NCBI GenBank assembly: GCA_003669055.1
Contig: RAYB01000013.1
Location: forward strand, 62,001-126,000
DNA from: a bacterium 1XD21-70
GTDB taxonomy: Bacteria > Bacillota > Clostridia > Lachnospirales > Lachnospiraceae
Direction of reading: 5' to 3'
DNA: 64,000 bases
Below, one piece after another: positions 45,105-64,000 of the stretch (its first letter is position 1; each line of letters begins with the position of its first letter). Both the position numbers and the translations under genes were made by a program. Under the pieces are notes generated by a model. It made no database searches. It was not told the origin of the DNA and worked only from the letters and a program-made list of their open reading frames with translations.

Positions 45105-46229
45105 CTATACGCGGTATAAACTCTTCCACTTTTCTAAATTTGCATCCCAGCTAGACATGTCATGTACTATTAATTTATTTCTTAATCGTTCCTCTTCATT
45201 CTGGCTGCATTTTATCAATCTTCGTACCTCTTCCCCAACTAATTCAGGACTGTCCACATAGGCCATTTTTATGCCTTTGTTTATTAATTCTTCATAAGGA
45301 AGCCACCTTCCTGTAATTACCATGTTCTTTGCATATAATGTTTCGAGCATTGAAGCAGACAATGAATCCGTCATTTGAACCTGGACAAAAATATCTGTGA
45401 TTTTTCGCAAACATGCTATCTCTTTTTCGTCCAGGTGATCGTTTAAAAAGCAATAATTATATTTTCCTTTTATGCAATCTTCTAATCTTCGTCTGTACTC
45501 TGGATCATGATTGCCATAAGTCCATGGTACAATAATAAAGATATCTTCCGAAGAAACATTATATTTAATCAAAGACTGAATCACCGGAAGATGCTGCTGC
45601 TGAAAAATCCTATTATAGCCAACTACTACTGTTTTTTTGCATGAATCAATTTTATACTTATGGCAAAACCTATGAATATCATCATTAGACAGCCCATCAA
45701 TCTCATCCAGTTCTGACAATCCAAATTTAACTAAACTATATTTACTTTTATAATTTCTATTTGTTTTTTTCTCAAAAATATATTCCATTTCTTCAGTCTC
45801 AAAAGTAATCACATCTGAAACCTTAAAAAGTTTATTCATTGCCTTTAGGCGCCTATTACTTTGTCTTAATAAATCGCTTCCCCAAAAACTGAGTATAATG
45901 CGGCTAAAATTTTTTTTAAGATAACCTATCAGCCAAATATACTTAAAATCTACAAACTGAATATTAACAATATCTTTTTGGGGATCAAACGGATAGGTTA
46001 TATTAAGATATCTACAAAACTTCTTCCAAAACAGCAATTTTTTTAACTTATTCAAACTGCTATATTCACTTATACCTTGATTTTTCAAGAAAGCTTCTAT
46101 TAGTGATTCCAGTGTTAGCGAGACCAAACTATACTCAGAAGCAAAATCACTGTCATTATTTAATTGCTTTTGCAAATTAGTATTATAAACACTGTCAAAT
46201 GTGCAAAATTGTAAGATTTTCTTTTTCAT
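45105..46229 (-). CDS. Glycosyltransferase (GT4-like)
   Basis: About 374 residues. N-terminal KKKILQFCTFDSVYNTNLQKQ, a middle FSRIILSFWGSDLLRQSNRR segment, and a C-terminal GT-B-like nucleotide-binding part (VVVGYNRIFQQQHLP; SLSASMLETLYAKNMVITGRW). The two-domain GT-B plan is visible, but the donor sugar is not identifiable. Start chosen at 46229 (MKKKILQ) because the upstream in-frame codons overlap the methyltransferase gene. Strongly AT-rich. Confidence 0.75.
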   Translation of the reverse strand: MKKKILQFCTFDSVYNTNLQKQLNNDSDFASEYSLVSLTLESLIEAFLKNQGISEYSSLNKLKKLLFWKKFCRYLNITYPFDPQKDIVNIQFVDFKYIWLIGYLKKNFSRIILSFWGSDLLRQSNRRLKAMNKLFKVSDVITFETEEMEYIFEKKTNRNYKSKYSLVKFGLSELDEIDGLSNDDIHRFCHKYKIDSCKKTVVVGYNRIFQQQHLPVIQSLIKYNVSSEDIFIIVPWTYGNHDPEYRRRLEDCIKGKYNYCFLNDHLDEKEIACLRKITDIFVQVQMTDSLSASMLETLYAKNMVITGRWLPYEELINKGIKMAYVDSPELVGEEVRRLIKCSQNEEERLRNKLIVHDMSSWDANLEKWKSLYRV

Positions 46230-46243
46230 CAGAATTGCTGCCC

Positions 46244-46960
46244 CTAAATTTCTCCAACTAAAACAATATGCTCTGCGCATATATTCTTCTTAAACAGCCC
46301 CAGCAGGAATCCCTTTTTCCCTTTCAACCTTCCAGCAAGATATATTTCCTTTGGCCTTATGCCTGAACAAGCTAATGTCTTGCATAATGTATATGGTGAA
46401 AACCAGCATCTATTTTCCGTATGGTTTATGTCTTTCCCGCTTAAGCCGTTAATGATATTACTATACCGATAAATATTAGGGACTGTAATCACTATTTGCC
46501 TGATAAATCCTGTATAGTTTTGTCTGATTTGAGATAGAAATCCTATAGGGTCGTCTATTTCATGAAGCATCTCCCCCATAACCATAAAGTCTACCTTCTC
46601 ATCCCCAAACCAGCCTTTTATAGTATCACTGTCCCGAATAATATCTGCCTTGATGACATTGTTATATCCCAGGTCTTTCACATAATTGATACCATCAGAA
46701 TCTATATCAACCCCTAATACATTACCACATTTGTCAGTAAGTATTGCGTGCAAATATACATTATTTTCAATCGCCTTGCTTATATTTGGAATATATCCTA
46801 CACATCCTAAATCAATCACGTTACCCCCCCCCCAGATTATTTTATTAATCACGTCAAATCTGCTGTTATATATTTGATCATTATACTCAAACGAAAAGCC
46901 ATTATGAACTCTTTCCGATTTCAAATACTCTTCTGGAATGTTAACAAACACTGTTATCAC
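46244..46960 (-). CDS. SAM-dependent methyltransferase with a G10 tract
   Basis: A 238-residue class I methyltransferase. SAM-binding motif I appears as NVIDLGCVGYIPNIS (~47), followed by VLGVDIDSDGI and FMVMGEMLHEIDDP. It probably methylates the glycan or a precursor. Its codons for Trp-Gly-Gly-Gly-Asn just before motif I contain ten consecutive G (46824-46833 as C on the plus strand). The gene is in frame in this sequence. Slippage of one base would stop translation early, so expression may be phase-variable. GTG start with a weak ribosome site. Confidence 0.75.
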   Translation of the reverse strand: MITVFVNIPEEYLKSERVHNGFSFEYNDQIYNSRFDVINKIIWGGGNVIDLGCVGYIPNISKAIENNVYLHAILTDKCGNVLGVDIDSDGINYVKDLGYNNVIKADIIRDSDTIKGWFGDEKVDFMVMGEMLHEIDDPIGFLSQIRQNYTGFIRQIVITVPNIYRYSNIINGLSGKDINHTENRCWFSPYTLCKTLACSGIRPKEIYLAGRLKGKKGFLLGLFKKNICAEHIVLVGEI

Positions 46961-48142: not shown

Positions 48143-49537
48143 TCAAACGAACTTATAGAGTATGTATACTGCCGCTAACACACATAAGACTGTCAGTCCA
48201 AGCCAAAAATATCTTTGCCGTTTTTTAATACTAAAATGGTAATATTCATTAAAGATTATTACGAACATAAAGGGATAAATCATTATAAAATGACGAAAAG
48301 TAAAAGTTGTAAGTATAATAGATAAAAATTCTGCCCAAAAAACTAACGATATCCGGTTAACCCGCCTTAACCCGCTTATAAGAAAAGGCAGCATAACCAC
48401 TTGATAACATGACCCAAGACTCACAATAAAATTAACAAATGTAAGCCCATTATTAAATATATTAAAAAATTGTATAATCCCTGTCGGCAAAGGAAACACA
48501 AAACCATATAATGTACGGTAGCATATTCCCAGCGGAAATACCGGCGTCAAAAAAATCTTACTATACAACTCACTGCTGTTTTTTTCTGCAATATATTGAT
48601 AATGATAAAGAACATACCTGCTTGCTTTTGCTAAGATAAATGAAATTGCATGAAACCGCACCAAAATAACAAGTGCAAAAACAGCTGCCATGAACATGAT
48701 TAAAAGTCTGTTTCTCGTGATTCGGTCTCCGGCAAATGATATGCAAAATACTACTAACATTAAGAAAAGCAGTTCTTTCCTTAACCAGTACGCAAAGAAT
48801 GCAAGAACAAGGATATACAAAGTTGATAAAAATCTGTTTCTGCAAATAATAGGCTCCAATGAGTTCCTTGTAATATCCTCACAAATAGCATATGCAATAA
48901 CGATAATCAAACAGCATAATGTATCTCTAAAAACATAAGAACTAAGATAAATTGCATTTGGGAAAAAAATAACCGAAAGCATAATAAGCTTTGCCTGTGT
49001 TTTCTCCAATCTTAAACTATATCTTGCTATCTTATATGCAATCACTCCTATTGCCATAAGAAAATCTATATTAAGCACTCGGAATGCAAAGGTACTATAA
49101 TATTGTTCCCCACCAGAAATTTTCATCAGCTGTGATAGCAGCCAATACATTCCGCTGCAATTCGTCTCTATCGGATAATCCCATGGCCATTTATAATTAT
49201 TTTTCAGGAATAATGATGCTGTATCCTCAAAATGAAGATCATCTGAACCTCCAATAAAATATGGTGCCCCATATGTTTGGATACTGCCGTAATAAACCAA
49301 CAAAACAAATGCCACTGCTATAATCTTATATATTCCTAAATGCAAAAGAGTTTTTTTATCCATTCCTCTTATAAATAATAAAATGATTATAACTCCGATC
49401 ATATCTGCAGTGAGTATAGAAACGGAAGAGAAACAAAGAGATAATGGAATATCCATCAGAAGTGATTCAAATACAAGCAGTAGTGTTTCATTCCATCCTT
49501 TATAATTATTCAAATATTGTCTATTTATATTTACCAT
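48143..49537 (-). CDS. Polytopic membrane protein, probable repeat-unit polymerase (Wzy-like)
   Basis: A 464-residue protein with ~11-12 hydrophobic segments and a large periplasm-side type loop (~residues 90-140) containing GGSDDLHFEDTA. Position among glycosyltransferases next to a flippase, size and topology suggest the Wzy polymerase. Wzy proteins share little sequence, so the call is by context. A GT-C glycosyltransferase is the alternative. Confidence 0.6.
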   Translation of the reverse strand: MVNINRQYLNNYKGWNETLLLVFESLLMDIPLSLCFSSVSILTADMIGVIIILLFIRGMDKKTLLHLGIYKIIAVAFVLLVYYGSIQTYGAPYFIGGSDDLHFEDTASLFLKNNYKWPWDYPIETNCSGMYWLLSQLMKISGGEQYYSTFAFRVLNIDFLMAIGVIAYKIARYSLRLEKTQAKLIMLSVIFFPNAIYLSSYVFRDTLCCLIIVIAYAICEDITRNSLEPIICRNRFLSTLYILVLAFFAYWLRKELLFLMLVVFCISFAGDRITRNRLLIMFMAAVFALVILVRFHAISFILAKASRYVLYHYQYIAEKNSSELYSKIFLTPVFPLGICYRTLYGFVFPLPTGIIQFFNIFNNGLTFVNFIVSLGSCYQVVMLPFLISGLRRVNRISLVFWAEFLSIILTTFTFRHFIMIYPFMFVIIFNEYYHFSIKKRQRYFWLGLTVLCVLAAVYILYKFV

Positions 49538-51932: not shown

Positions 51933-52739
51933 TTAGTAGTACATTCTATAATTTACAAGATAAGAATGTTTCATTTGCTTATACTTTTCTATAAAATTAG
52001 ATTTTCCGGTGGAAGAATGTTCGTTATGAACGATTTTCAAAGCTGGGTCAAAAAAGCACTTTTTATTATTCTTGTATACTATTTCAGCTATGTGCTGTTC
52101 TTCATGATACATCAGGCCTTTAAAAGGATTAACCATAAGTTGCCCAATCAAAGCTTCCGTCAGGATCATGTATGCGCCATGTATTAGATAAACTTGCGTA
52201 ACCACTTTTATATCTTTCTTATTGCTTTTTCCTCTTCTTTTTTTTAATGTGCTTAACATGTGATATAAAAATGCCGACATAACATTAGAATATACCAGCA
52301 AATAAATCTTCATCCTTTTTTTGGATATACGCCGCATATATCTCGGATTCTGGTGTTCTCCTGTGAAGGGGCAATATATATCAGGACCAATGGCCCACGC
52401 ATTCTCTGGATATTTTCCTCCCAGCAACTTCTTAATAAATTGATTATCAGGATAGTCGATGTCTGTATTTGAAATAATCACCCATTTCCATGTGTAGCCT
52501 TTGCCTTCCATACTCTTATAACCATATAAAGCACCGTTTAAATATCCACTATTACCTTTGCATTTATATACAAATATATTTTCATTTTTCTTACCAAAAT
52601 ATTCAATATTTGTATCATCATTTATCACAACACATATCACAAGTTTATCGCTGAATTCTATTCTTTCTAACTTTTTAATATAATCCATTATTTCTTTTTT
52701 ATTGTTAAAGCAAACAACAATATTCAAGATCATTTCCAT
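51933..52739 (-). CDS. Glycosyltransferase family 2
   Basis: 268 residues. N-terminal ILNIVVCFNNKKEIMDYI, NSGYLNGALYGYKSM and WVIISNTDIDYPDNQFI show the GT-A nucleotide-binding and Asp motif. The C-terminal LIHGAYMILTEALI and FMYHEEQ-like block (LMYHEEQHIAE) are typical of the rhamnosyltransferase-like subgroup. The gene following in the operon starts 7-28 bases later. Confidence 0.82.
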   Translation of the reverse strand: MEMILNIVVCFNNKKEIMDYIKKLERIEFSDKLVICVVINDDTNIEYFGKKNENIFVYKCKGNSGYLNGALYGYKSMEGKGYTWKWVIISNTDIDYPDNQFIKKLLGGKYPENAWAIGPDIYCPFTGEHQNPRYMRRISKKRMKIYLLVYSNVMSAFLYHMLSTLKKRRGKSNKKDIKVVTQVYLIHGAYMILTEALIGQLMVNPFKGLMYHEEQHIAEIVYKNNKKCFFDPALKIVHNEHSSTGKSNFIEKYKQMKHSYLVNYRMYY

Positions 52740-59196: not shown

Positions 59197-60894
59197 TCAG
59201 CGACCCTCTTCTGTCTCTGCTATAGATGTCCATAGGTCTTTGACACAATAATCAAGCCCTTTATAAACAGACAACCTTTGATCATAGATACTGTTTCCAA
59301 ATGCTTTACGAACCATATCTCCCACTTTCCCCGGGATATAGGAAGCTATGTCTACTGCCGGATTGAGCACCCGTGTCACCCAGATAGGATGCCCTGCTGC
59401 GTCCGCAATGGCCTTCACCATACGGCATGTATTCGTGTACTCCAAATTCTGTGGAAAATAAACCCCGCCCTCACCACTCATCATAAGCAAGCACAAAAAC
59501 TCACAAAAATTGTCAATGTAAAGCATAGAACGTTCATTTTCCACAGCCGGAAAGATCGGAAGTTTTTTTGCCAGCTTTGCTAAAACCGAATAATTCCCCT
59601 TGCTTCCTGGCCCATAAATCATAGGTGGACGCAACACAGCTACATAAAAGTCTTCATCTGCCAATTGTCTCACGCCTTGGTCTGCCTGCCATTTGCTGTC
59701 ACCATAGAAATTTGCCGGGAATGGAAGCGTATGTTCATCAATCACCTGCTTCCTTCCATATAGGGACGATTTTCCATAAATAATCATGGAACTCATAAAA
59801 ACAAATTGTCTGACGCCTGATGCCTTAGCAAGCCTAGCCGTCTCAAGCGCCAGATCTGTATTCACCGCGTAATACCTTTTCTTCATTTCCTCGTCCGCAT
59901 TTCCTACATCTGCATGTGCGATTCCGGCAACATGAAAAACTGCATCATAGGAACTAAAGTCCTTCTCCCGCCAGCTTCCGTCCAAAGTATCTACTGTATC
60001 TATAAAGAAGTTTGAGCCATAATATCTTTTGGCATAATCTTTAAAAGATTCCCCGATATAGCTATTTGCACCTGTAATTAAAATACGTTTTTGTACACAA
60101 CTGTCTATATGGAAATTTTTTCGATAACCATAATCTCTGATATCGGCAGTTTCTCTATGCAATCCCTCTGTTCTGCCCTCCACAATACCTTCTGAAGATA
60201 AAACAGATTTTATAGTGCCTAATAAGCAACGCAGATCAAAAAGAAATGCCTCCATCTCCCCTGACCTAAGTTTAGAAACATACTCTCCGTCCATTTTGGC
60301 TTTTGCCGGAATTTCGAGTTCATCTCTCCCGTTGATCTGAGCCCATCCTGTAAGCCCGGGTAAAACTTTGTTAGCACCATATTTGTCTCTTTCTTCCACC
60401 AAATCCTTCTGATTCCACAAAGCTGGCCTAGGACCTATGATGCTCATTTTTCCCCGGAATATATCCCACATCTGAGGAAGTTCATCCAAACTACTTTTTC
60501 TTAAAAATTTTCCGACCCGTGTAATATACTGATCCGGATCTTGCAGTTGATGTGTTGGCACATCATGAGGAGTTTGAATCTTCATAGAGCGAAATTTGTG
60601 TAATCGAAAAAACTCTTTATCTTTCCCTACCCTTTTTTGTGTAAACAGTACAGGCCCTGGGTCATCTATTATTATGGCAAGAGAAATAATTCCAAATAGA
60701 GGGCTAATAATTAAAAGCCCGACAAAGGATAAACATTTATCCAGAGCAGGCTTAATATAATGCATATATACATTTTGACGGGAAACATCTCCAGATTTTT
60801 CTGTTATAAACTTAACTATCATGCAAATCCCTATTAAAAGCGTCCCTGTAATTGTAATATTTCGTTTTATATTTTTCTTAACCATACACTTCAT
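59197..60894 (-). CDS. Fusion: initiating phosphoglycosyltransferase + NAD-dependent epimerase
   Basis: 565 residues. Residues ~45-235 are a monotopic bacterial sugar transferase that loads the first sugar phosphate on undecaprenyl phosphate: a membrane segment, FTQKRVGKDKEFFRLHKFRSM-type motif start, SSLDELPQ, IGPRPAL, and LTGWAQINGRDE. An extra hydrophobic segment lies at ~10-30. From ~267 (KRILITGANSYIGESF) to the end is an extended SDR epimerase/reductase (YAVNTDLALETARLA; FMSSMIIYGKSS). The epimerase part likely prepares the sugar that the first half transfers. The ATG overlaps the LoaP stop (TAATG). Confidence 0.87.
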   Translation of the reverse strand: MKCMVKKNIKRNITITGTLLIGICMIVKFITEKSGDVSRQNVYMHYIKPALDKCLSFVGLLIISPLFGIISLAIIIDDPGPVLFTQKRVGKDKEFFRLHKFRSMKIQTPHDVPTHQLQDPDQYITRVGKFLRKSSLDELPQMWDIFRGKMSIIGPRPALWNQKDLVEERDKYGANKVLPGLTGWAQINGRDELEIPAKAKMDGEYVSKLRSGEMEAFLFDLRCLLGTIKSVLSSEGIVEGRTEGLHRETADIRDYGYRKNFHIDSCVQKRILITGANSYIGESFKDYAKRYYGSNFFIDTVDTLDGSWREKDFSSYDAVFHVAGIAHADVGNADEEMKKRYYAVNTDLALETARLAKASGVRQFVFMSSMIIYGKSSLYGRKQVIDEHTLPFPANFYGDSKWQADQGVRQLADEDFYVAVLRPPMIYGPGSKGNYSVLAKLAKKLPIFPAVENERSMLYIDNFCEFLCLLMMSGEGGVYFPQNLEYTNTCRMVKAIADAAGHPIWVTRVLNPAVDIASYIPGKVGDMVRKAFGNSIYDQRLSVYKGLDYCVKDLWTSIAETEEGR

Positions 60895-61424
60895 TAGGCT
60901 TTTAATGCCCTTTTATCCTCCCTCACCATCTCAATCCCCAACCGCAGTTCCGTCTCCCTCCCCATAAACCCCACCCGCACCACCACTTCCCTCTTATGCA
61001 GGTTCACCTTCACCACATCCCCCGCATAATCCTTCAGCGGCCCTTCAATCACTCGGATCTTCTTCCCTTCCCCAACCACCACCTTCGACAGGCCTGCCCG
61101 GTGCATATGCCCTCCTAGGTTGCGCACCAGACTCTCCTCCTCTTCACTCAGCGCGACAAAATACCCTTCCTCCCTCCCCAAAACCTTCGTCAGCCTCGGC
61201 ACTCGCCTCAACTCCTGGTACAACTCCCCCGGCCTGTCCGTGGCCACAAAAATATAGGCAGGGAACAGGATCTCCTCCACCTTGTTCCACTGCCCATAAA
61301 ATTTCTTCATCCGCTCCCTCTTGGGGATAAAACACTCCTCTATATAATAAGAAGGAACCCTCCTCCTTATCATATCAGCAGTATGCTCCTCTTCCCCGCC
61401 CAGCGTCTGTATCACATACCACAT
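60894..61424 (-). CDS. loaP: NusG-family antiterminator LoaP (second of two)
   Basis: A 176-residue specialised NusG paralogue. The NGN domain starts MWYVIQTLGGEEEHTADMI and has YIEECFIPKRERMKK and LFPAYIFVATD. The C-terminal KOW domain carries IRVIEGPLKDYAGDVVKV and HKREVVVRV. LoaP proteins bind RNA polymerase, with a leader RNA hairpin, to let it read through terminators in long polysaccharide or antibiotic operons. CAGGAG is spaced 8 bases before ATG 61424; the frame is open upstream. It is translationally coupled to the next gene. Confidence 0.85.
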   Translation of the reverse strand: MWYVIQTLGGEEEHTADMIRRRVPSYYIEECFIPKRERMKKFYGQWNKVEEILFPAYIFVATDRPGELYQELRRVPRLTKVLGREEGYFVALSEEEESLVRNLGGHMHRAGLSKVVVGEGKKIRVIEGPLKDYAGDVVKVNLHKREVVVRVGFMGRETELRLGIEMVREDKRALKA

Positions 61425-61619
61425 AGCATGTTCTCCTGTTTTCATATAGTAATGCTGCCCATATATGGCAGGCATCCACCAGCCAGGGTCAATGCCCACT
61501 TTTTCGGGCAGGCTCCGCCATCCGCAGCCGGAAGCATCCATGCTCCCTGCTGCGGCCTCCCGCTGCCAATATAACCATAAGAACCCAACCCCTGTGCCAA
61601 TGCTTCAGGGATCCAGCCC
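61425..61619. other. Gap between the two NusG-like genes
   Basis: 195 GC-rich bases with no gene on either strand that I would support. A leader-type RNA element for LoaP could lie here, but I could not identify a convincing conserved hairpin. Confidence 0.3.
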
Positions 61620-62183
61620 TCAATCCTGTATATGCTTCTCGTAGATCTCTAACCCCACACAGATCCTTTGGAGGACGGCAGGCTCTTTCCTCCTGTCTTC
61701 CCCCACAGCCTCCCCGGGCATCCCCACCCAGGCGACCCGTTTATGGCGGTCTATTTTCCGGATGTTTTTCTCATGCCCCGCCAGCGGCCCGCCGGTCACC
61801 ACAAGGTTCTCTCCGCAGATGCGTCCCCGGGACATCCCGATGACCTGGCTGCCGCCGCATAGCCTTAGCAGGCTTTCCCTGCTGCCTTGGCATACGGCAT
61901 GCAGCCTCCCATTTCTTTCTCTCCTGCTTCCGGGGAACAGCCTCTTAAGCATTTCCTCCAATGGGGCTATGCCTTCCGGCTTGTCCGGGACGGACAGTAC
62001 CACATACCCTGGGAAAAGGTTCCGCTCTGCCACGTGCCACCCTCCCTGGTAACGCAGCAGCTTTTGGCATTTCAGGATCCATGCAGCCTCCAGGATGTCC
62101 CTGGGGGCATTATCCATGCACTGCCCTACCACTTCCTGCTCCTCTTCTCCACAGCAATCCAACAGATACCAGATCCTGCCCAC
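61620..62183 (-). CDS. NusG-family antiterminator, LoaP-like (first of two)
   Basis: A 187-residue divergent NusG paralogue. NGN-like N-terminus (RIWYLLDCCGEEEQEV, NLFPGYVVLSVPD), then a KOW domain with LVVTGGPLAGHEKNIRKIDRHKR and ICVGLEIYE, the typical LoaP ending. It shares domain plan but little sequence with the LoaP directly downstream. It is the first gene of the polysaccharide operon, ~110 bases from the invertible segment. GTG start at 62183 with GGGAAGG upstream. Confidence 0.8.
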   Translation of the reverse strand: MGRIWYLLDCCGEEEQEVVGQCMDNAPRDILEAAWILKCQKLLRYQGGWHVAERNLFPGYVVLSVPDKPEGIAPLEEMLKRLFPGSRRERNGRLHAVCQGSRESLLRLCGGSQVIGMSRGRICGENLVVTGGPLAGHEKNIRKIDRHKRVAWVGMPGEAVGEDRRKEPAVLQRICVGLEIYEKHIQD

Positions 62184-62286
62184 TTCCCTTCCCTGCCTGT
62201 ATGCCCCCTCCTCTGTGAGAGGATAGCCAAGCTAAACAGATATACTGTACCCTTCCGTTTTTGACATATTCCCTCTTGTAGCTGCA

Positions 62287-62313
62287 TGTCGCATAACTGG
62301 ATGTTAAGCGACA
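62287..62313. repeat. Left recombination site (IRL) of the invertible segment
   Basis: 11-bp arms TGTCGCATAAC and GTTAAGCGACA around the 5-bp core TGGAT. It is the inverted partner of 62456-62482, matching at 26 of 27 positions (the difference is the seventh base). Two inverted arms around a short asymmetric core is the form of a tyrosine-recombinase crossover site. Confidence 0.8.
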
Positions 62314-62365
62314 AATTTTTAAAAAATCCTTAACAATTCATGCCAGAAAAGGCAAAGTGATGCGG

Positions 62366-62394
62366 TTGACGCGCATAAAAAATGATGCTATAAT
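62366..62394 (+). promoter_or_regulatory. Consensus promoter inside the invertible segment, currently facing right
   Basis: TTGACG (62366-62371), 17 bases, TATAAT (62389-62394) on the plus strand. Here it reads away from the polysaccharide operon. Inversion between the two cores would place it at about 62403-62375 on the minus strand, facing the LoaP-like gene with a leader of ~185 bases. No comparable promoter facing the operon was found in 62184-62480. Confidence 0.8.
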
Positions 62395-62455
62395 CAAATC
62401 GATTACAAAAAAATGGTTTTTTATCAGTCTGTAAACCACCTGTAAACTAAAAAGG

Positions 62456-62482
62456 TGTCGCTTAACATCCAGTTAAGCGACA
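62456..62482. repeat. Right recombination site (IRR) of the invertible segment
   Basis: Arms TGTCGCTTAAC and GTTAAGCGACA around the core ATCCA, the reverse complement of the left core. With AAGG/CCTT outside, the hairpin stem reaches 15 bp (62452-62486), so it could also act as a transcription stop for the small gene on its right. Confidence 0.8.
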
Positions 62483-62497
62483 CCTTCTAAATTTGAG

Positions 62498-62680
62498 TTA
62501 TCCAGATTGAAACTTTATTACAACAGTGCAAATTAAAATTGCATATGAGCTGCAAGCTACCAAATCTGTAAAGCAGTCTGTTGATACCAAAACGCTTTTC
62601 TTATCAGGCAACATTTTCCCTATGATATTTTCCTCTATGGCAGTAAATCCATAGGTGAAAATATGGTATGTCCGAATCAT
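62498..62680 (-). CDS. Small protein of unknown function beside the invertible promoter
   Basis: 60 residues: IRTYHIFTYGFTAIEENIIG, then STDCFTDLVACSSYAILICTVV. ATG has GGAGGTG 4 bases upstream, and an extended -10 (TGGTATAAT, 62709-62701) lies just before it, so it is expressed from its own promoter. I do not recognise a family. The hydrophobic end and stop close to the right inversion site suggest it may be a longer gene cut off there. With the invertible promoter in the present orientation this gene is crossed by antisense transcription. Confidence 0.5.
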   Translation of the reverse strand: MIRTYHIFTYGFTAIEENIIGKMLPDKKSVLVSTDCFTDLVACSSYAILICTVVIKFQSG

Positions 62681-62700
62681 TTTTCACCTCCATTATCCAA

Positions 62701-62709
62701 ATTATACCA
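62701..62709 (-). promoter_or_regulatory. Extended -10 promoter of the 60-residue gene
   Basis: TGGTATAAT on the minus strand, no good -35 box; 20 bases before the ATG at 62680. Confidence 0.5.
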
Positions 62710-62785
62710 CAACATCATGCCAACAGTATTGCGTAATGCCCAAAAAAATATTTTCTAGGCATTTATTTTAAGTTTTGAAAAATTA

Positions 62786-62813
62786 TTGACTATTTTCAGA
62801 GATATAGTATTAT
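62786..62813 (+). promoter_or_regulatory. Promoter of the type III antitoxin RNA/toxin unit
   Basis: TTGACT (62786-62791), 16 bases, TATTAT (62808-62813). Confidence 0.6.
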
Positions 62814-62819
62814 ATTATT

Positions 62820-62916
62820 AGTGGTGAGTCCTACCGCAAAGTGGACTGCTAAAAGCGTTAGCAACTCTAATGGAGTTACTACACAAATGGCTATGTGGAA
62901 ACACATAGCCATTTTT
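62820..62916 (+). ncRNA. Candidate type III antitoxin RNA leader (ToxI-like) with terminator
   Basis: Between a promoter and the toxN-like start lie three consecutive small hairpins (AGTCC/GGACT at 62827-62847, GCTAA/TTAGC at 62848-62862, AACTC/GAGTT at 62863-62877). A 13-bp intrinsic terminator with T5 follows (62885-62916). This is the layout of type III systems, where an antitoxin RNA precedes the terminator and the toxin is made by read-through. Clear tandem repeats of the usual ~35 bases were not seen, so the RNA may be a single or eroded unit. Confidence 0.55.
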
Positions 62917-62929
62917 AACGAGGAGATAT

Positions 62930-63389
62930 ATGCAGACAGATTTTAAATTATACAAGGTGGATATGAAATATATCCGTAATCTACATAATATAGATGATAA
63001 AATGCTTTCTGTTTCGCCACAAGCAGGAAAAGATAACAGGGTTTTCATCGGGATTGTTGTTATTTGTGGCATTCACAAATATTGCATACCACTTTCATCG
63101 CCAAAGGAAAAACATAAGAACATGAAAAATTCTATGGACTTTTCTAAAATTGAAGTAAATGGAAATTTATTAGGCGTTTTAAATTTTAATCTGATGATAC
63201 CTATTGAAGAAGAACAATCTGAAATGGTGTCAGACGAATAATGAGGTAATCTGCAATAAAGCCAATGTCCTATATAAGAAATACCTATCCAATGAGCCAT
63301 TTGCAGGCAGGAATCGCTGCCTGAATTTTCCCAAATTAGAAGCAGAGTGTGAAAAATATAATTTAAAGATCAAGAAAGGCACAAACTAA
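62930..63389 (+). pseudogene. ToxN/AbiQ-family toxin with internal deletion
   Basis: GAGGAG precedes the ATG. The first ~95 residues match the type III endoribonuclease family (FKLYKVDMKYIRNLHNIDD, then RVFIGIVVICGIHKYCIPLSSP). The first frame stops at 63241 after EEEQSEMVSDE. The family C-terminus resumes in another frame from ~63222 (WCQTNNEVICNKANVLYKKY) and ends at 63389 (NLKIKKGTN). About 25 codons between the two blocks are missing and the frame is shifted, so the toxin should be inactive. Confidence 0.72.
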
Positions 63390-63458
63390 ACCTCCCTTGA
63401 TACACATTACCACAGTTCCAGTGAATCTTGGAAAAATTTTAGAAACAACACATTTCTA

Positions 63459-64000
63459 ATGATAGGCGAGAATGGATATATTGTTGCGTACATTGACCTT
63501 TTAGGTGTTACAAATAAGATTCAATCAAAGGACAGCCAATTGGCAATGAACAAACTACATAATCTTTATACATTTTCGGTAAAATCAACACGAGATGTTC
63601 AAATTGAGGAAAATCAGGACATACAATTCAAAATTTTTTCGGATAATATTATAATAGCTAAAAAATTGTCAAATCAGATTCCCCAACAAACTCAAGAGAT
63701 TCAAAGCCTTCTAATGTGTGCTGGACGCTTCCAAGAACTTTCTGCCAGCGATAGTGTGGGGTGGCTTTTGCGTGGAGGCATTTCTATAGGACAATTATTT
63801 ATAGAAGATGTAATGGTTTAGGGTGAGGCGCTTTTGAAATCATATTATTTAGAAGATAAAATTGCAAATTATCCAAGAATAATAATTGATAAAGATATTG
63901 TGAACGGAATCATCCAAAACAGTGTACTATGTGAATATTTAAGAAAAGATTTTGATAATTTTTATTTTTTAAACTTTCTGAATGATTGTCATTTTTGTGG
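63459..64000 (+). pseudogene. Nucleotidyl-cyclase-like hypothetical protein with in-frame TAG, continuing past the window
   Basis: Residues 1-120 (GYIVAYIDLLGVTNKIQ, FKIFSDNIIIAKKL, WLLRGGISIGQLFIEDVMV) end at a TAG at 63819-63821. The same frame goes on uninterrupted to the window edge (GEALLKSYYLEDKIANYPRI). In such proteins a Trp usually precedes G-A-L, so TGG to TAG is the likely change. The spacing of Asp-Leu-Leu-Gly, Ser-Asp-Asn and Arg-Gly-Gly-Ile-Ser-Ile-Gly recalls class III nucleotidyl cyclase folds found in defence islands. This is an inference; family and function are unconfirmed. No good ribosome site. Confidence 0.5.

What the first reader, a model, noticed from the sequence alone, without database searches (positions are those of the whole stretch)
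62287..62482. Probable invertible (phase-variable) promoter controlling the exopolysaccharide operon, caught in the OFF orientation
Two 27-bp sites, each 11-bp arms around a 5-bp core, lie as inverted repeats (26/27 identical). The cores TGGAT and ATCCA are exact reverse complements, so recombination would invert the 174 bases between them. Inside is a consensus promoter (TTGACG-N17-TATAAT) facing away from a 22-kb polysaccharide operon that begins ~100 bases to the left. No other promoter facing the operon was seen. Invertible promoters ahead of capsule operons are well established in Bacteroides; here the same logic appears in a Firmicute with LoaP-type antiterminators. No recombinase gene is in the window.
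Basis: partly seen in the sequence, partly recalled or inferred. Interest (0 to 1): 0.92.

Follow-up and report, generated by a model that had tools for sequence, protein, structure and literature searches.

The report
Flippable promoter switch for sugar coats
A short stretch of DNA carrying a promoter sits between two mirror-image recombination sites in front of a surface-sugar operon of a bacterium that is probably a Lachnospiraceae, and it belongs to a family of such on/off switches in its genome and its relatives, so a Firmicute appears to vary its coat much as Bacteroides does.

Summary
Observation confirmed; interpretation largely supported and extended. The genome has seven loci with these sites (13 sites). 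At the six where the operon side is assembled, the element borders two tandem LoaP/NusG-type genes.

From 12 genomes I examined 45 complete site pairs. The 7-nt spacer is identical within all 45 pairs but takes 30 forms, as tyrosine recombination requires. Orientation: 31 OFF, 2 ON, 12 not classifiable, plus 2 partial ON. Contigs break at sites; two joins overlap by exactly 55 bp. Site spacing follows ~10.4-bp steps.

A tyrosine recombinase family (65% identity or more) occurs in exactly the 3 of 24 genus genomes with sites; in three Blautia genomes a 43-47% relative lies between variant sites. Five other genus genomes have a different site and a different recombinase, again co-occurring. The distal site looks like a terminator that exists only in the OFF state.

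Flipping and transcription were not measured. Known kind (invertible promoter, as in Bacteroides capsule loci); new variant with LoaP, tyrosine recombinases and a recombination-site terminator.

The parts
62287..62313 (.). LoaP-proximal recombination site (arms GTCGCATAA / TTAAGCGAC around 7-nt spacer CTGGATG)
62456..62482 (.). Distal recombination site, inverted copy, identical spacer
62298..62471 (.). Segment predicted to invert (core to core, 174 bp); 142 bp between the 27-bp sites
62366..62394 (+). Consensus promoter TTGACG-17-TATAAT with TG before the -10; faces away from the operon (OFF)
62444..62494 (+). Extended palindrome on the distal site; hairpin with a moderate U-rich tail met by the promoter in the OFF state
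   Evidence: I2, 23-nt arms, 87% complementary; dG -24.4 OFF vs -13.6 for the modelled ON junction
61620..62183 (-). Operon gene 1: divergent LoaP/NusG paralogue
   Evidence: (NF033641 82 bits, below its cut-off 125)
60894..61541 (-). Operon gene 2: LoaP antiterminator
   Evidence: NF033641 151 bits, cut-off 125; PF02357
40245..60894 (-). Polysaccharide genes: initiating sugar transferase, glycosyltransferases, heparinase II/III-like, UDP-glucose dehydrogenase, MocA oxidoreductase, nucleotidyltransferase, methyltransferase, flippase-type, DegT aminotransferase, UDP-GlcNAc 2-epimerase; three reading frames (45105-46280, 48143-49537, 51933-52739) had no Pfam match

Best explanation
The element is a site-specific invertible promoter. 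A tyrosine recombinase encoded elsewhere (G000:C91:39203-40198) binds the arms GTCGCTTAA/TTAAGCGAC, exchanges strands across the identical 7-nt spacer of the two inverted sites, and flips the segment between them. In the present (OFF) orientation the sigma-70 promoter fires away from the operon into the distal site, which with its flank forms a hairpin plus U-rich tail and probably terminates the transcript. After inversion the promoter faces the two tandem LoaP-type genes and the 22-kb polysaccharide operon, and the hybrid hairpin is weaker and mostly lacks the U-tract, so transcription enters; LoaP then supports elongation through the operon. Seven loci of this genome share the site, so one enzyme could switch several surface polymers independently. 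Shown: site anatomy, multiplicity, spacer identity, both orientations across loci, linkage with LoaP-type genes, recombinase co-occurrence, phased spacing. Inferred: recombinase activity on these sites, transcription, termination and coat phenotype.
For: (1) Own genome: 12 sites at up to 3 mismatches over 27 nt, 13 at up to 2 over 25 nt; reversed-pattern control 0 in both. (2) Identical 7-nt spacer in 45 of 45 pairs with 30 spacers counted regardless of strand; re-pairing at random gives a mean of 1.9 and maximum 9 identical, re-pairing within each genome a mean of 14.1 and maximum 25; mean mismatches 0 in the 7-nt spacer against 1.42 in the 18 arm positions. (3) 31 OFF and 2 ON among 33 classifiable complete elements, plus partial ON at G018:C85 and G000:C38 (by eye). 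(4) Contigs end at sites; two joins overlap by exactly 55 bp. (5) Recombinase at 65% identity or more in exactly the 3 of 24 genus genomes that carry sites; in Blautia-titled G327, G328 and G329 a 43-47% identical gene lies between inverted variant sites. (6) Searching 24 genus genomes with the gene-1 model gave 15 class-1 copies, all beside sites; 14 of the 15 were rows of the model, so the news is that no siteless class-1 copy turned up. (7) Gap lengths follow a 10.4-10.45-bp period (R 0.82, n=39; 0 of 20,000 random sets). (8) OFF hairpin more stable in 33 of 33; U-rich tail in 30 OFF against 7 ON junctions.
Against: No reads or RNA were available, so inversion and expression are unmeasured. 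OFF dominates (31 to 2). G321 carries a 70% identical recombinase but no site at up to 3 mismatches and no gene-1 match. G001 has a 36% homologue and no sites. Among the 18 strong gene-1 copies, G324:C3:170289 has one lone site with a 6-nt spacer; the weaker G325:C129 copy (E 4e-42) has no site in view. Site searches are not free of background: the reversed control gave 6 hits in 299 family genomes at 2 mismatches and 5 in 18 genomes at 3 mismatches. Eleven of the 29 G019 integrase hits came without a locus and were not compared. The window's own distal hairpin has only a moderate U-tract and the terminator scan did not call it; 3 of 33 elements had more U on the ON side and 2 tied. Elements are related by descent, which weakens the phasing statistics.
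Confidence: 0.9

Rival explanations
1. The palindromes are only intrinsic terminators or attenuators around a fixed outward promoter; nothing inverts.
For: Distal copies are terminator-like; promoters point away from LoaP in 31 of 33 classifiable complete elements.
Against: Terminators do not need identical spacers within each pair and different ones between pairs (45 of 45); two complete and two partial elements are in the opposite orientation; contigs break at sites with exact 55-bp overlaps; a recombinase family co-occurs with the sites and a relative lies between variant sites in three Blautia genomes.
Confidence: 0.04
2. The element is a miniature inverted-repeat mobile element (MITE-like) that carries a promoter.
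For: Several related copies per genome, palindromic ends, about 180-250 bp long.
Against: 33 of the 39 Hungatella-type complete elements have a LoaP-type gene next to them in the fetched stretch, which is not random insertion; the spacer differs between copies while both ends of a copy agree. Target-site duplications were not tested.
Confidence: 0.03
3. The sites are invertible, but a different recombinase does it, for example of the L016 or L027 families.
For: Two other tyrosine recombinase families are also shared by G000, G018 and G019, their genus-wide distribution was not tested, and 11 of 29 G019 integrase hits were not compared.
Against: The L024 family follows the sites across all 24 genus genomes, one copy lies 3 kb from an element in G019, and relatives are enclosed by variant sites in Blautia.
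Confidence: 0.1

Closest known systems
Bacteroides fragilis / B. thetaiotaomicron capsule loci (global invertase Mpi; UpxY, UpxZ): PMC12632263, passages read; the primary papers it cites were not read
   Same: Many surface-polysaccharide operons per genome, promoters flanked by inverted repeats that undergo inversion, a consensus sigma-70 promoter, an antitermination gene among the first two genes, one global invertase in B. fragilis.
   Different: Different phylum and sites; LoaP-type instead of UpxY-type antiterminator; both first genes LoaP-like rather than UpxY plus UpxZ; tyrosine recombinase (that Mpi is a serine recombinase is recalled); recombination site doubling as an OFF-state terminator-like hairpin.
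Clostridia inverton group 139 with tyrosine recombinase group 35: PMC11892184, sections 6 and 8 and passages read, supplement not read
   Same: 33 invertons, 32 from Clostridia, linked to a tyrosine recombinase within 5 kb; a Clostridium sp. D5 example has 26-nt repeats around 205 bp and shifts orientation over passages.
   Different: The main text does not contain the word LoaP, and the passages seen do not tie this group to polysaccharide operons; its motif is in the supplement, so identity with the present site is untested.
Eggerthella lenta capsule inversions: PMC13174815, passages read
   Same: Inverted repeats and LoaP-linked capsule clusters with changed expression.
   Different: 16-bp repeat, inversions of about 2 Mb, no small promoter element; the authors found no recombinase gene next to the breakpoints.
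LoaP antiterminator of Bacillus velezensis: PMC12691694, search listing only
   Same: Gene 2 passes the NCBIfam LoaP cut-off.
   Different: LoaP together with 'phase variation' was found in one held paper only, the E. lenta preprint.

Membership tests
Invertible promoter (inverton) | Inverted repeats flanking a promoter | tested here: met
Invertible promoter (inverton) | Both orientations exist | tested here: met
   Across loci and species: 31 OFF, 2 ON, 2 partial ON. Within one sample only indirectly, through contig breaks; the window's own element was seen in one orientation only
Invertible promoter (inverton) | Orientation changes transcription of the adjacent operon | not testable with these tools
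   no RNA data
Tyrosine-recombinase inversion site | Arms plus 6-8-nt spacer identical in both partners | tested here: met
   45 of 45 with a 7-nt spacer; one further pair with a 6-nt spacer. Feature recalled
Tyrosine-recombinase inversion site | Cognate tyrosine recombinase acts on the sites | tested here: inconclusive
   co-occurrence and enclosure; PF00589 and SAM-like N-terminal domain; activity not assayed
Bacteroides Mpi/UpxY/UpxZ capsule system | UpxY-family antiterminator | tested here: not met
   window gene 2 scores LoaP 151 bits (cut-off 125) and UpxY 57 bits (cut-off 100); window gene 1 hits LoaP only, below cut-off
Bacteroides Mpi/UpxY/UpxZ capsule system | Mpi serine recombinase | not tested
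   serine recombinases of this genome were not searched; the linked enzyme is a tyrosine recombinase
LoaP-controlled operon | LoaP gene at the operon start | tested here: met
   NF033641 over cut-off for gene 2 in the window, L012 and L191, three of three tested
LoaP-controlled operon | LoaP acts on the operon | not testable with these tools
   no functional data; no Rfam match in window 60000-64000

The most novel reading that the evidence does not exclude
These Firmicutes acquired, at least twice within one genus (site systems A and B with unrelated sites and different tyrosine recombinases), a phase-variation switch for LoaP-linked surface polysaccharides in which the recombination site itself is a conditional terminator: inversion turns the promoter round and at the same stroke breaks up the terminator that silences it, while the two sites and the promoter are held in helical register so that the very short loop can synapse.
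Probability: 0.6. Interest if true: 0.85.

Novelty: new variant of a known kind. Interest (0 to 1): 0.78.

Why it matters
Multi-locus phase-variable surface polysaccharide with a dedicated NusG-type antiterminator is known from gut Bacteroidales. The same logic built from different parts in Firmicutes, with two different recombination systems within one genus, would be strong convergence. It offers defined sites, a candidate enzyme and ready tests of how tyrosine recombinases synapse sites only 130-200 bp apart, and it gives sequence signatures with which other Clostridia can be screened for switchable surfaces.

Tried and rejected
Rfam on window 60000-64000: no match up to E 1. Exact site pattern in viral contigs: 0. 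Phage integrases: 643 records match, the best listed at 37% identity, so no phage source was named. A site scan of 299 family genomes found sites only in the own genome and G285; G285 has no gene-1 match, and at two of its three loci the neighbour is a TnpB-like gene (the third was not tested). The scan tool did not call a terminator at the window's distal site. genes given a second look: G323:C71 proved to have a pair with a 6-nt spacer, G324:C3:170289 a lone site, G325:C129 none; G324:C28 has a site followed by foreign-looking DNA. Structure prediction was not used because sequence models already named both genes. My first count of 36 spacers read the two strands as different; regardless of strand there are 30. 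Rows left out of the 45-pair count: lone sites and contig-end partials, pairs more than 420 bp apart (G019:C17 and the three Blautia recombinase loci), one G285 pair whose second site has 4 mismatches, and the later 6-nt example.

Full report
OBSERVATION. The window (G000:C11:62001-126000 of a 4.31-Mb draft genome in 137 contigs) holds two 27-bp sites at 62287-62313 and 62456-62482, inverted, 26 of 27 identical. The 25-nt site pattern has only these two matches in the window at up to 3 mismatches, with none in 100 shuffles. Between them lies TTGACG-17-TATAAT on the + strand, the only promoter-like site that the scan found in 61400-62700 (1 found; shuffles average 1.8 at that loose threshold). 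Exact TTGACR-N17-TATAAT occurs 18 times in 293 kb of window and selected loci, 13 times inside elements. The promoter faces away from a minus-strand run of genes from 62183 to about 40245: two NusG/LoaP-type genes, then sugar transferase, glycosyltransferases, heparinase-like, UDP-glucose dehydrogenase, flippase-type, aminotransferase and epimerase genes. Beyond 39964 come a RpiR-type regulator, a PTS permease and a GH1 glycosidase, probably a different unit.

ONE OF A SET. The own genome holds 13 such sites at up to 2 mismatches over 25 nt, 0 with the reversed control, at seven loci: C11 (window), C69, C46, C117, C91, C79 and C38. Six have two LoaP-type genes next to the element; at C79 none is in view and the contig begins 135 bp from the site. 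Eight operon genes were named at four of the other loci: six are of sugar-polymer type (initiating sugar transferases, glycosyltransferases, MurJ-type flippase, DegT aminotransferase, cytidylyltransferase/epimerase), one is an HpcH/HpaI aldolase and one has no match (C69, C117, C91, C38).

SITE ANATOMY. In 24 genus genomes only G000, G018 and G019 have sites (13, 7, 19; reversed control 0). In 18 genomes reached through recombinase homologues, 8 have matches at up to 3 mismatches: five called Hungatella-type here (8, 19, 18, 4, 4; four titled Hungatella, one Clostridiaceae bacterium) and three titled Blautia with variant arms GTCGCTTAT/ATAAGCGAC (3, 2, 5); 10 have none; the reversed control gave 5 hits in all. 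A sample of 299 family genomes added only G285 (4 sites; reversed control 6 hits in all). From fetched stretches I took 45 complete pairs 100-420 bp apart: 39 from eight genomes (G000, G018, G019, G322-G326) and 6 from G285 and the three Blautia genomes. The 7-nt spacer is identical within the pair in 45 of 45 (over 9 nt in 44 of 45), with 30 different spacers regardless of strand. Random re-pairing gave a mean of 1.9 and a maximum of 9 identical; re-pairing within each genome, a harder control because some genomes have only one or two pairs, gave a mean of 14.1 and a maximum of 25. Arms differ by 1.42 positions per pair on average, spacers by 0. This is what strand exchange by a tyrosine recombinase requires and what a plain terminator or repeat does not.

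ORIENTATION. Of the 45, 33 could be classified by a LoaP-type gene in view: 31 OFF and 2 ON (G322:C98, G325:C77); 12 could not. Two partial elements are ON: G018:C85, whose contig begins inside the distal site, and G000:C38, whose contig ends at the -10 region (read by eye). Contigs end at or next to sites: in G323 five sites lie 1-32 bp from a contig end, in G019 two (5 and 25 bp), in G000 one (54 bp). For the 39 sites of the three genus genomes, 3 within 60 bp compares with about 0.14 expected from 387 contigs in 12.8 Mb (my arithmetic). Two joins, G323 C33/C49 and G019 C34/C74, overlap by exactly 55 bp at the site, as at a branch of a k=55 assembly graph. I read this as both orientations being present in the sequenced samples; it is indirect.

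RECOMBINASE. Among the integrase loci fetched for comparison (24 hits of G000, 12 of G018, one of which gave no reading frame, and 18 of the 29 of G019), three families are shared by the three genomes. One (L024, G000:C91:39203-40198) was searched in all 24 genus genomes: 65-100% identical copies in exactly G000, G018 and G019 (two in the last), a 36% homologue in G001, none elsewhere at E 1e-40. Random placement would hit exactly the three site-bearing genomes once in 2024 (my arithmetic). One G019 copy lies 3 kb from an element. In G327, G328 and G329 (titled Blautia; the last Blautia schinkii DSM 10518) the 43-47% identical gene lies between two inverted variant sites about 1.43 kb apart. 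The protein has PF00589 and a SAM-like N-terminal domain. Against: G321 carries a 70% identical gene but no sites and no gene-1 match. The genus-wide spread of the other two shared families was not tested.

LoaP LINK. A model of 24 gene-1 proteins (A2) finds 15 class-1 copies (E 2e-59 or better) in the genus, all in G000, G018 and G019 and all beside a site. This is partly circular, since 14 of the 15 are rows of the model; the information is that the search of 24 genomes brought no further class-1 copy without a site. Weaker copies without a site exist (G000:C35, G018:C5, G019:C2, and in G001, G006, G007). In the five Hungatella-type genomes 18 copies have E below 1e-66, 10 of them rows of the model. 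Seventeen lie beside a site pair, a contig-end part of one or, at G324:C28, a site followed by foreign-looking DNA; one (G324:C3:170289) has a lone site; the weaker G325:C129 (4e-42) has none in view. Gene 2 passes the NCBIfam LoaP cut-off in three of three tested, gene 1 scores 82-109 against 125 in four of four tested.

A SECOND SYSTEM. Five other genus genomes (G003, G004, G011, G021, G022) have tandem LoaP-type genes and a different inverted site, GTGYAACAnAA-N6-AnTGTGTTRCAC (13, 10, 7, 11 and 2-3 matches; 0 in the other 19; reversed control 0). A different promoter-like pattern, CTTGCAA...TATnAT, faces away from LoaP in 8 of the 8 fetched loci in which it was found by the element; 2 of the 10 fetched had none. 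In G011 three site pairs enclose a 192-aa tyrosine recombinase gene. Its 74-100% identical relatives occur in exactly those five genomes; the next best are 38% (G019) and 36% (a second gene of G004). Random placement would give this once in 42,504 (my arithmetic). G011 and G022 are 86% and 82% complete and G004 and G021 have 7% contamination. So tandem LoaP operons of this genus are paired with two unrelated recombination systems, never both in one of the 24 genomes searched.

HELICAL PHASING. The 39 gaps fall at 132-135, 144, 155, 162-166, 174-176, 183-187 and 195-197 bp. The best period is 10.45 bp with R = 0.82; reduced to 23 distinct (homology cluster, gap) values R = 0.77 at 10.4; none of 20,000 uniform random sets reached either. 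Both stretches, site to -35 (53-54, 75, 85-86, 95-96, 105-108, 116-119) and -10 to site (28-29, 39-41, 48-53, 62), move by about whole turns. Most elements are homologous (36 of 39 in one cluster), so values are not independent; the spread over seven length classes argues for selection, presumably for synapsis in a short loop.

TERMINATOR SWITCH. For 33 elements I folded the RNA at the junction that the promoter meets in OFF and the one it would meet in ON, the junction of the state not seen being modelled by swapping site halves. OFF is more stable in 33 of 33 (mean -22.4 against -14.1 kcal/mol). At least 5 U in the 10 nt after the site occur in 30 OFF and 7 ON junctions. U counts in 12 nt are higher in OFF in 28, tied in 2, lower in 3. 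The window is a moderate case (dG -24.4 and -13.6; U 5 and 2) and was not called a terminator by the scan. Termination is an inference.

LITERATURE. In the held library LoaP with phase variation gives one paper, the E. lenta preprint with 2-Mb inversions and a 16-bp repeat (passages). Invertible promoter with Lachnospiraceae and tyrosine recombinase gives none; inverton with Lachnospiraceae and capsular polysaccharide none; Hungatella with phase variation two, seen as listings only. Broader searches gave no title on LoaP with invertible promoters, but most of those papers were not opened. PMC11892184 reports Clostridia inverton group 139 linked to a tyrosine recombinase, with orientation shifts over passages in Clostridium sp. 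D5; it may be the same or a sister system, but its motif is in a supplement not open here. The Bacteroides comparison rests on passages of PMC12632263. The library lacks most subscription papers and bioRxiv, so absence from print is not established.

VERDICT. The element is an invertible promoter, currently OFF, in a multi-locus switch of LoaP-type polysaccharide operons. It works like the Bacteroides capsule switch but is not a member of it. New are the Firmicute/LoaP setting, the two recombinase-site systems within a genus, the phasing and the probable terminator coupling.

Noticed in passing
window 62820-63241: ToxN-family type III toxin gene (PF13958, 62930-63241) beside the element, preceded by a hairpin (62885-62914) and, by eye, repeat-like sequence; the match stops at profile position 93 of 159, so the gene looks truncated or frame-shifted.
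   Followed up: partly
L103:9062-10309, L101:8121-9326, L219:2453-3802, L223:2818-4017: Related sites form inverted pairs (gaps 295-342 bp) directly upstream of TnpB-like genes in G285 and two Blautia-titled genomes, four of four tested; by eye their RuvC motifs look degenerate, suggesting TldR-like RNA-guided regulators under an invertible promoter (motif knowledge recalled).
   Followed up: partly
L263:8652-9527, L264:8935-9768: System-B invertible segments in G011 that carry their own 192-aa tyrosine recombinase gene.
   Followed up: yes
L207:3954-3978, L206:919-943, L205:4195-4219: Two genomes have a site with one half replaced, by eye by the same foreign sequence, and a third site is followed by foreign-looking DNA with a 417-aa reading frame: mobile elements may use these sites as attachment targets.
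   Followed up: partly
G000:C11 and G000:C91: Two loci of the own genome share the same spacer (CTGGATG), as do two loci in each of G019, G323, G324 and G329, so recombination between loci, with large inversions, would be possible.
   Followed up: no
L095:7389-8927: Inverted sites 1.5 kb apart in G019:C17 around a 290-aa reading frame without a Pfam match.
   Followed up: no
L092:10470-10674: Site pair with a 155-bp gap between a glycosyltransferase gene and a symporter gene, without a consensus promoter match and without a LoaP-type gene in view.
   Followed up: no
L110: Hungatella-titled genome with a 70% identical recombinase but no sites and no gene-1 match: an incomplete assembly or an orphan enzyme.
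   Followed up: partly
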